A DNA stretch of 5,693 bases from Oscillospiraceae bacterium (GTDB lineage: Bacteria > Bacillota_A > Clostridia > Oscillospirales > Oscillospiraceae). The DNA is taken from NCBI GenBank assembly GCA_017516785.1, contig JAFXAV010000021.1, positions 1 through 5,693 of the forward strand, in the 5' to 3' direction. The notes under the pieces were generated by a model, which did not search any database, was not told the DNA's origin, and saw nothing but the letters and a program-made list of their open reading frames with translations. Both the position numbers and the translations under genes were made by a program. Below, in pieces: positions 3,858 through 4,311 of the stretch (position 1 is the stretch's first letter; the number at the start of each line of letters is the position of its first letter).

Positions 3858-3914
3858 AAAGCCTCCCTTGTGTAAAGGGAGGTGGCACGGCGTAAGCCGT
3901 GACGGAGGGATTGT
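3858..3914 (+). repeat. Left arm of nuclease cassette (two hairpins plus tail)
   Basis: Hairpin A is CCTCCCTT (3862-3869), loop GTGTA, AAGGGAGG (3875-3882), an 8-bp stem. Hairpin B is CACGGC (3886-3891), loop GTAA (GNRA type), GCCGTG (3896-3901), a 6-bp stem. The tail GAGGGATTGT (3905-3914) contains most of the ribosome binding site of the nuclease gene. The arm is also open in the nuclease reading frame back to a TTG at 3847, reading ...PPLCKGRWHGVSRDGGI. Confidence 0.85.
3904..3909 (+). promoter_or_regulatory. Repeat-borne ribosome binding site of the nuclease gene
   Basis: GGAGGG lies 6 nt before the ATG at 3916, a near-ideal Shine-Dalgarno, and falls within the inner part of the left repeat arm. 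It decides the start codon against the in-frame TTG at 3847, which overlaps the ruvA stop and would translate the whole repeat arm. Its five bases GGAGG can pair with CCTCC at 3862-3866, and the tail can pair with 4260-4269 in the right arm. Confidence 0.75.
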
Positions 3915-3915
3915 C

Positions 3916-4284
3916 ATGCAGTATAAACATAATGCGAGTCTAACGCCTTTTGCCAAAGAACTGCGGAAAAATATGACAAAAGAGGAGCGACACCTTTGGT
4001 ATGATTTTTTAAGGGGGCATCCTGGCAGATTTGCCAGACAGAAGGTGTTAGGAAAATACATAGCAGACTTTTACAGCGCCCAGGCAAAGATGGTCATAGA
4101 GTTGGATGGATCACAGCATTTTGATCCCGAAGAGATCCGTAAGGATCAGCAGCGGACAGCCTTTTTGGAGGGGTATGGGTTACAGATTGTGCGCATACCC
4201 AATAATGCAGTAAGCGAAAATTTTCGCGGTGTATGCGATTACTTGGATGAATTGATTGAACAATCCCTCAGTCAGCTCCGCTGA
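3916..4284 (+). CDS. DUF559 / Vsr-like endonuclease-domain protein
   Basis: This 122-aa protein belongs to the DUF559 family, predicted PD-(D/E)XK-fold nucleases related to the very-short-patch repair (Vsr) endonucleases. Visible features are LTPFAKELRKNMTKEERHLW (9-28), RFARQKVLGKYIADFY (38-53) with the likely catalytic Asp51, VIELDGSQH (60-68) with Glu62, Asp64 and His68, an Arg/Lys-rich helix RKDQQRTAFLEGYG (75-88), and the closing strand QIVRIPNNAV (90-99). The length is typical and the domain complete, so a functional nuclease is plausible; its DNA target is unknown. The gene is AT-richer than its neighbours and uses TTA, ATA and AGA codons rare in ruvA/ruvB, suggesting transfer. Its last residues (QSLSQLR) and stop codon are encoded inside the right arm. 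With no promoter of its own seen, it is probably read from the ruv operon transcript. Confidence 0.88.
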   Translation: MQYKHNASLTPFAKELRKNMTKEERHLWYDFLRGHPGRFARQKVLGKYIADFYSAQAKMVIELDGSQHFDPEEIRKDQQRTAFLEGYGLQIVRIPNNAVSENFRGVCDYLDELIEQSLSQLR

Positions 4285-4311
4285 CAGCTCCCTTTACACA
4301 AGGGAGCCTTT
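4260..4311 (-). repeat. Right arm of nuclease cassette (inverted copy)
   Basis: Read on the - strand from 4311 the order is the same as in the left arm: AAAG, hairpin A with GCTCCCTT/AAGGGAGC around GTGTA, hairpin B with GTCAGC/GCTGAC around GGA (+ strand 4271-4276 and 4280-4285, loop TCC), then the tail GAGGGATTGT ending at 4260. Relative to the left arm, hairpin A has a swapped basal pair (G-C for C-G) and hairpin B has an unrelated sequence but the same stem length. Only TTT follows hairpin A on the + strand, so it is not a convincing terminator. Confidence 0.85.

What the first reader, a model, noticed from the sequence alone, without database searches (positions are those of the whole stretch)
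3858..4311. Self-contained hairpin-armed cassette carrying a DUF559 nuclease
A small predicted PD-(D/E)XK nuclease gene is enclosed by inverted arms that share a 19-base identical block and a 10-base inner tail. Arms and gene are fused: the left arm gives the ribosome binding site, the right arm the last codons and stop. Such an arrangement suggests a mobile or formerly mobile unit in which the nuclease acts on its own ends, analogous in logic to REP elements with their RAYT transposases or to homing nucleases, but with a Vsr-like enzyme. The structure is seen; the mobility mechanism is inference.
Basis: partly seen in the sequence, partly recalled or inferred. Interest (0 to 1): 0.85.

Follow-up and report, generated by a model that had tools for sequence, protein, structure and literature searches.

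The report
Nuclease gene in mobile hairpin arms
A tiny gene for a DNA-cutting enzyme sits between two mirror-image hairpin arms, and this gene-plus-arms unit, as well as gene-less pairs of the same arms, turns up at many different places in gut bacteria and in similar form in distant bacteria, which points to a kind of small mobile DNA whose partner enzyme was not known.

Summary
In detail: a 122-aa DUF559 gene (3916-4284) lies between inverted two-hairpin arms (3858-3914, 4258-4311) that supply its ribosome-binding site and stop codon. It is general: 73 of 81 related loci have both arms; an inverted-repeat test gives 74 of 75 loci against 3 of 232 control ORFs. None of the relatives read has the unit between ruvA and ruvB. 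Gene-less arm pairs occur; of 44 facing pairs 42 join an A and a B arm. Across 394 genomes arms go with DUF559 (odds ratio 11), not with Y1/RAYT transposases (1.4, n.s.). Of 23 DUF559 loci from Deinococcus, cyanobacteria and proteobacteria, 15 have inverted arms. The fold is that of Vsr and homing endonuclease I-Bth0305I. Most likely DUF559 is the cognate nuclease of a widespread REPIN-like repeat family. That it cuts its own arms is inference: no target duplication, exact junction or biochemistry was obtained, and diverged DUF559 genes often lack arms.

The parts
3858..3914 (+). left arm (type A): hairpin 1 (3861-3883), hairpin 2 (3886-3901), tail with the ribosome-binding site
   Evidence: left arm found by pattern in 76 of 81 loci
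3904..3908 (+). GGAGG, presumed ribosome-binding site of the DUF559 gene, inside the left arm
   Evidence: sequence; GGAGG within 16 nt of the start in 69 of 81 loci
3916..4284 (+). DUF559 (PF04480) gene, 122 aa, Vsr/EDxHD-fold nuclease
   Evidence: (D51, E62, D64, H68 invariant in 52 sequences)
4258..4311 (-). right arm (type B, read on the minus strand): hairpin 1 (4287-4307), hairpin 2 (4271-4285); holds the last codons and the stop codon
   Evidence: stop codon inside this arm in 74 of 76 loci
3254..3850 (+). ruvA, left neighbour
4335..5372 (+). ruvB, right neighbour; ruvA and ruvB adjoin without the unit in the relatives read

Best explanation
The stretch 3858-4311 is a compact mobile unit: a Vsr/EDxHD-fold nuclease gene (DUF559) fused to two different inverted hairpin arms, A (gene side, with the ribosome-binding site) and B (with the stop codon). 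The arms are the part the enzyme recognises. Shown: the unit sits at many different sites, near-identical copies have different surroundings, sites without it exist, gene-less A-B pairs occur in the same genomes, both arms of a locus share variants, and arm-bearing genomes are enriched for DUF559 and not for Y1 transposases. Inferred: the nuclease cuts or nicks the arms when they are extruded as hairpins (the second hairpin often has a C-GNA-G loop, recalled as unusually stable in DNA), and host repair or replication then copies the unit, or an A-B pair in trans, into a broken site, as in homing and without target duplication. Gene-less pairs are then the non-autonomous, REPIN-like form; at least one is an internal deletion of the gene-bearing form.
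For: Both arms at 73 of 81 DUF559 loci by pattern, 1 with none; inverted-repeat test 74 of 75 against 3 of 232 control ORFs in the same loci. 64 of 81 loci share no 200-nt same-side flank with another (15 of the 80 fetched loci were blind on one side). Copies 96-99% identical in different surroundings, e.g. L065/L071 at 99.2%, although such pairs also share an outer repeat on the right or both sides. None of the 30 best ruvA-ruvB loci of the order, nor the 19 of 21 readable in close relatives (overlapping sets), has DUF559; five of the latter have 9-15 nt there. In 7 of 29 relatives both flanks of the L012 site were found; six lack the insert. Facing close arm pairs: 42 A-B, 2 B-B, 0 A-A; L130 keeps code for GICEYLDAAVK of DUF559. 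Arm type and inner box linked: A 108 of 108 GGAGGG, B 94 of 96 TGAGGG; hairpin 2 kept in 89 of 100 and 76 of 82 distinct sequences against means of 24 and 19 with halves re-dealt. Own arm partner better than re-dealt: 0 of 10000 permutations reach it. Arms with DUF559: OR 11, p 1.5e-20; with Y1_Tnp: OR 1.36, p 0.19. Fold: I-Bth0305I, Vsr. Other phyla: 15 of 23 loci with significant arms (two of them by one point), 3 of 82 control genes.
Against: No biochemistry; cutting of the arms is not shown. No target duplication, no orientation bias with GC skew (43 of 81) and no exact junction was obtained. A single PD-(D/E)XK nuclease has no strand-transfer activity that I know of. Nine of 38 genomes with at least 10 arms had no DUF559 at E 1e-20; a family search recovered one, a contig-end fragment beside an arm. 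In the 20 most diverged clostridial loci only 6 have clear own arms within 110 nt. In 34 of 69 readable loci at least one further repeat end lies outside the arms, so a larger unit may do the moving there. Of 70 close neighbouring arm pairs 26 do not face each other, and single arms occur. Genome counts are not corrected for phylogeny. A DUF559 protein of Caulobacter, VsrA, is discussed as a mismatch-repair enzyme (PMC12907096, passages).
Confidence: 0.7

Rival explanations
1. The arms are ordinary REP-like repeats spread by a RAYT/Y1 transposase, and DUF559 is a passenger between two of them.
For: Inverted doublets with hairpins look like REPINs (PMC3116915, abstract). RAYT-like ORFs, recognised by eye, sit in the same ruvA-ruvB gap of relatives L082, L331 and L348.
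Against: Arms are not associated with Y1_Tnp (OR 1.36, p 0.19) but are with DUF559 (OR 11); 18 of 38 arm-rich genomes have no Y1_Tnp hit. A passenger would not be expected between arms in 74 of 75 loci and in other phyla.
Confidence: 0.08
2. DUF559 is a resident repair or defence nuclease (Vsr/VsrA-like), and the arms are terminators, RNA stabilisers or autoregulatory hairpins of the gene.
For: Fold similar to Vsr; Caulobacter VsrA, a DUF559 protein, is required for the DNA-damage response in cells lacking a cytosine methylase (PMC12907096, passages). Stop codon and ribosome-binding site lie in the arms.
Against: Arm pairs occur without any gene, arms occur in phage contigs (73 stretches), and the unit sits in many contexts.
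Confidence: 0.1
3. The gene-plus-arms module rides in a larger mobile element, and that element's own unknown enzyme does the moving.
For: 16 of 69 readable loci have both outer repeat ends and 18 one; in the near-identical pairs the similarity runs past the right arm, and in some past the left; an outer left end without the arm pattern exists (L357).
Against: 35 of 69 loci, the window among them, have no outer end by the patterns used; one outer motif is absent on both sides in 56 of 57 gene-less and 41 of 64 gene-size elements.
Confidence: 0.12

Closest known systems
REPIN/RAYT (REPtron) systems
   Same: short hairpin repeats as inverted doublets, gene-less copies in the genome, one candidate enzyme gene flanked by the repeats
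   Different: enzyme is a Vsr/EDxHD-fold DUF559 nuclease, not an HUH Y1 transposase; here gene and arms occur together at many sites, whereas REPtrons are said not to appear to transpose as a unit (PMC6006769, passages)
EDxHD homing endonucleases (I-Bth0305I)
   Same: nearest solved homing nuclease by sequence profile (E 0.0013) and fold; a DUF559 gene counted with inteins in Thermosynechococcus is already assigned to the EDxHD homing family in print (PMC9403480, passage)
   Different: I-Bth0305I is described with an extended DNA-binding region and a nearly 60-bp target (PMC3943268, passages); here 122 aa, no added domain seen, many different sites, hairpin arms, gene-less arm pairs
CGTC-tagged REPs
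   Same: palindrome with CGTC at its foot and a CCA tail; 59 of 108 A arms fit CGTC...CCA on the other strand; these REPs were said to lack a dedicated transposase (PMC3733652, passages)
   Different: B arms do not fit (0 of 96); the arms have an additional first hairpin; identity with the published families was not tested; the one Neisseria DUF559 locus had no inverted arms and no dRS3-like match by my pattern
Insertion sequences and MITEs with terminal inverted repeats
   Same: inverted ends, gene-less internal-deletion derivatives
   Different: no DDE or HUH transposase in the unit, no target duplication seen

Membership tests
REPIN/RAYT | REP doublets in inverted orientation, present without the gene | tested here: met
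REPIN/RAYT | cognate HUH Y1 transposase | tested here: not met
   window gene is DUF559; arms not associated with PF01797
EDxHD homing endonuclease | Vsr-like EDxHD catalytic fold | tested here: met
EDxHD homing endonuclease | one conserved long target site with and without the gene | tested here: not met
   64 of 81 loci share no 200-nt flank with another (15 loci blind on one side)
EDxHD homing endonuclease | cleavage of the empty site | not testable with these tools
   needs purified enzyme
Insertion sequence (DDE) | target-site duplication | tested here: not met
   111 elements; the best offset was a 3-nt match in 10 against 2.9 for re-dealt partners
Insertion sequence (DDE) | DDE transposase gene | tested here: not met
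   only gene recognised inside the unit is DUF559
CGTC REP | CGTC foot, palindrome, CCA tail | tested here: inconclusive
   59 of 108 A arms, 0 of 96 B arms
DUF559 (PF04480) | match above the curated cut-off | tested here: met
   92.7 bits against 20.6

The most novel reading that the evidence does not exclude
DUF559 is the missing dedicated enzyme of a bacteria-wide superfamily of hairpin repeats (CTCCC...GGGAG hairpin, second palindrome, GAGGG tail, heterotypic inverted doublets), including repeats like the CGTC REPs said to lack a transposase, and it spreads them by nuclease-driven copying without DDE, HUH, recombinase or reverse-transcriptase chemistry.
Probability: 0.45. Interest if true: 0.95.

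Novelty: categorically new. Interest (0 to 1): 0.88.

Why it matters
Short palindromic repeats are common in bacterial genomes, and for some large groups no partner enzyme is known; one published superfamily is stated to lack a dedicated transposase (PMC3733652, passages). Here such repeats are tied to one gene family in four phyla, with control genes. If true, DUF559, which Pfam still names as of unknown function, becomes a testable mobility enzyme of a fold known from repair and homing, and the origin of these repeats is open to direct experiment with a 122-aa protein and 57-nt DNA substrates.

Tried and rejected
Target-site duplication: none found. Strand bias with GC skew, as expected of IS200/IS605-like insertion: none, 43 of 81 positive. 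RAYT as mobiliser: not supported. An outer terminal motif as the true end of the unit: in a minority only. Exact empty sites in viral contigs: two degenerate scans returned only the query contigs. The upstream flank of L017 had only weak matches in relatives (65% identity at best over about 500 nt) and was not followed. A first arm pattern had the wrong loop length and hit one of 16 genomes. Rfam at gathering score: no match. PADLOC and PHROGs: partial nuclease-domain hits only (best E 1.8e-7 and 3.2e-7 for the window protein). DUF559 search of viral contigs found 2 relatives, not read further for arms. Of 23 plasmid loci 8 had no significant arms: Azospirillum brasilense twice, Shinella, Photobacterium, Methylobacterium, Picosynechococcus 7002, one Synechocystis, Neisseria; where a record had no annotation I set the gene ends by hand. 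In the plasmid pattern scan the reversed control pattern also hit in four of six records (2 to 10 per strand); the 88 listed forward matches were read and sorted by eye into two frames. Published descriptions: no paper linking DUF559 to repeats was found in the searches (open-licence library); of the 14 DUF559 papers most were seen only as listing, and passages of three were read. Taylor et al. 2011 is not held. That GNA loops are unusually stable in DNA, and that the Shinella arm resembles the rhizobial RIME repeat, is recalled and comes from no call.

Full report
What is there. The window carries part of a phosphoenolpyruvate carboxykinase gene, an unassigned ORF, ruvC, ruvA, the DUF559 gene and ruvB. 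Between ruvA and ruvB lies a 454-nt unit: arm A, gene, arm B inverted. Each arm is two hairpins and a tail; as single-stranded DNA they fold far better than shuffles. In arm orientation the common A reads GCCTCCCTTGTGTAAAGGGAGGTGGCA-hairpin 2-TGACGGAGGGATTGT and B reads GGCTCCCTTGTGTAAAGGGAGCTGTCA-hairpin 2-TGACTGAGGGATTGT. The tail of A is the presumed ribosome-binding site, and B holds the stop codon.

The arrangement is general in the subfamily. A pattern scan of one genome per species gave 590 stretches, 558 of them encoding a relative, of which the best 80 were kept, so these are the closest relatives. With the window, 73 of 81 have both arms by pattern, 3 the left only, 4 the right only and 1 (L078) none; some of the one-sided ones are sequence variants or eroded. 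By a pattern-free inverted-repeat test with shuffles, 74 of the 75 with enough flank are significant against 3 of 232 other ORFs of at least 200 aa in the same loci. The stop codon lies in the right arm in 74 of 76, and GGAGG precedes the start in 69 of 81.

It moves. 64 of 81 loci share no 200-nt same-side flank with any other; 15 of the 80 fetched loci had under 200 nt on one side, none on both. Genes 96-99% identical in DNA lie in different surroundings (L065/L071, L010/L013, L011/L012), but side by side these pairs share an outer repeat on the right, and in part on the left, before the flanks diverge. At the window's own site, none of the 30 best ruvB loci of 394 genomes of the order has DUF559 between ruvA and ruvB, nor have the 19 of 21 closer relatives where both genes could be read (the sets overlap). 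Gaps of 9, 12, 9, 10 and 15 nt occur in L330, L334, L338, L340 and L342. The gap collects insertions: L341 (G418) holds a gene-less hairpin pair of similar architecture, and L331, L348 and L082 a RAYT-like ORF (by eye). At the L012 site both flanks were found in 7 of 29 relatives: six have 38-83 nt where L012 has about 1.26 kb including the unit, and one (L281) has a longer partial insert.

Gene-less pairs. In 8 genomes carrying the unit an exact arm pattern found 2 to 14 arms each. Reading around them shows A and B arms facing each other with spacers from a few to about 80 nt. Over all clostridial and viral loci held, 70 neighbouring arm pairs 40-260 nt apart split into 44 facing, 8 back to back and 18 in tandem; of the facing ones 42 are A-B, 2 B-B and none A-A. 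Of 121 A-B elements in the DNA then held, 64 are gene-size and 57 gene-less (a sample chosen by arms, not a genome census). L130 keeps code for GICEYLDAAVK, the end of DUF559, between its arms, an internal deletion. Single arms occur too, for example present in phage contig L203 and absent in its relative L155.

Structure is kept while sequence changes. Among 204 distinct arms, all 108 A arms have G and 94 of 96 B arms have T before GAGGG. Hairpin 2 is extremely variable, yet 89 of 100 (A) and 76 of 82 (B) distinct versions pair over at least 4 bp, against means of 24 and 19 when halves are re-dealt. Loops closed C-GNA-G are the commonest. The two arms of a locus resemble each other more than foreign partners do: 0 of 10000 permutations reach the own mean over 118 loci, and 1 of 10000 in the 20 most diverged. 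In that last set only 6 of 20 have clear own arms, each with its own hairpin sequence (L240, L241, L247, L250, L254, L255); the other 14 have none within 110 nt or unmatched ones. This is the main weakness of a simple one-gene-one-arm rule.

Enzyme and arms go together over genomes. In 394 genomes of the order, 98 have DUF559 at E 1e-20 and 102 an arm at up to 2 mismatches (the reversed pattern gave 0 in the rows shown); 62 have both, 36 gene only, 40 arm only, 256 neither (OR 11, p 1.5e-20). The same table for Y1_Tnp gives OR 1.36, p 0.19. Of 38 genomes with 10 or more arms, 29 have DUF559. The 9 others were searched with the family model: one (G101, 70 arms) has a fragment at a contig end right behind an arm, eight have none. 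Loss, assembly breaks at repeats, or another mobiliser could explain these. Neither table is corrected for phylogeny. In the class as a whole 22 of 113 genomes have arms.

Beyond the Clostridia. A search of plasmid records with the Deinococcus protein found 41 records; 23 of them were fetched, chosen for variety. Of the first 20, 13 have significant inverted repeats around the gene (L393 and L398 by one point only) against 3 of 82 other genes on four of these records (Fisher p 4e-9). Three more gave two with and one (Neisseria) without, so 15 of 23: Deinococcus, cyanobacteria, sphingomonads, one Sinorhizobium and one Azospirillum. Four of the 23 (L377-L380) were looked at first, together with two phage loci outside the 23, of which L382 has arms and L381 has not. 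The Novosphingobium arms (L394) are GGGGAGGTGGCA-hairpin-TGACGGAGGGG, the same core as in the window; Sphingobium and Sphingomonas (L404, L405) have GGGGGACC-hairpin-GGTGGAGGGG, as does the clostridial L229. Five of six sphingomonad records hold 88 matches of an arm pattern; of 30 close neighbour pairs 28 face each other and 24 combine the two subtypes, 14.5 expected (p 7e-4). The reversed control pattern also matched in four of these records.

The enzyme. D51, E62, D64 and H68 are invariant in 52 aligned sequences. The model (pLDDT 88) matches NGO0050, the catalytic domain of the homing endonuclease I-Bth0305I and, more weakly, Vsr; the profile search agrees for the first two. A DUF559 gene has been assigned to the EDxHD homing family in print (PMC9403480, passage). 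A DUF559 protein, VsrA of Caulobacter, is needed for the DNA-damage response seen in cells lacking a cytosine methylase (PMC12907096, passages), which fits a DNA-cutting activity of the family in vivo.

How it probably works. The first step, supported by association only, is recognition of the arms by the nuclease. The inferred steps are extrusion of hairpins, nicking or cutting at or near the arms, and copying into a broken site by host repair, which would leave no target duplication (none seen). A homing-like swap of gene-bearing and gene-less interiors between identical arms is a natural variant and would explain why the same outer repeats enclose either form. An IS200/IS605-like single-strand route tied to the lagging strand is not favoured (no skew bias). 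Units tend to lie 3' of genes: in 57 loci the left and right neighbours were (+,+) 24, (+,-) 18, (-,+) 8, (-,-) 7.

What is known. REPINs with RAYTs are the nearest working analogue (PMC3116915, abstract), with a different enzyme and with REPtrons said not to appear to transpose as a unit (PMC6006769, passages). CGTC REPs are described as lacking a dedicated transposase (PMC3733652, passages); 59 of 108 A arms fit a CGTC-palindrome-CCA frame on the other strand, no B arm does, so the link is a lead. No paper tying DUF559 to repeats was found.

Verdict. A real, general and, by all signs, mobile unit with a new enzyme-repeat pairing; the mechanism is open but testable.

Noticed in passing
L082, L331, L348 (ruvA-ruvB gap of relatives): RAYT-like Y1 transposase ORFs (recognised by eye) occupy the same intergenic gap that holds the DUF559 unit in the window; the gap looks like an insertion hot spot.
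   Followed up: partly
L010, L012, L013, L014, L016, L032, L035, L060 and others, outside the arms: Larger repeated outer ends (left AAATTCCAATTTGTCGAAC..., right hairpin plus TTTAACTGTTTTACGAA just before terminator-like hairpins); the left end is seen without the arm pattern in L357: possibly another mobile element.
   Followed up: partly
L341 / L363 (G418 ruvA-ruvB gap): Gene-less inverted hairpin pair with a variant of the arms at the window's orthologous site.
   Followed up: no
L237 and L238: The same DUF559 gene upstream of a decarboxylase-like gene in two related genomes, without typical paired arms; about 130 nt with a CTCCCTT hairpin present in one and absent in the other.
   Followed up: no
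L133/L183 and L155/L203 (viral contigs): Single B arms sit in phage genomes, one present in L203 and absent in its relative L155.
   Followed up: partly
L388 (Shinella plasmid): Left side of a DUF559 gene is a CTTCTCCCC hairpin repeat with the same layout (hairpin, GGTGGC, second hairpin, GATGAGGG); no right partner found.
   Followed up: no
L387, L395, L405 (Sphingomonas plasmids): DUF559 genes are wedged inside operons, for example between sufB and sufC and between transhydrogenase subunit genes, as between ruvA and ruvB in the window.
   Followed up: no
window 1110-2423: 437-aa ORF with a lipoprotein-like start and no Pfam match at E 0.001.
   Followed up: no
window 5401-5555: Long non-coding leader-like stretch upstream of a small zinc-ribbon-like ORF; no Rfam match at gathering score.
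   Followed up: no
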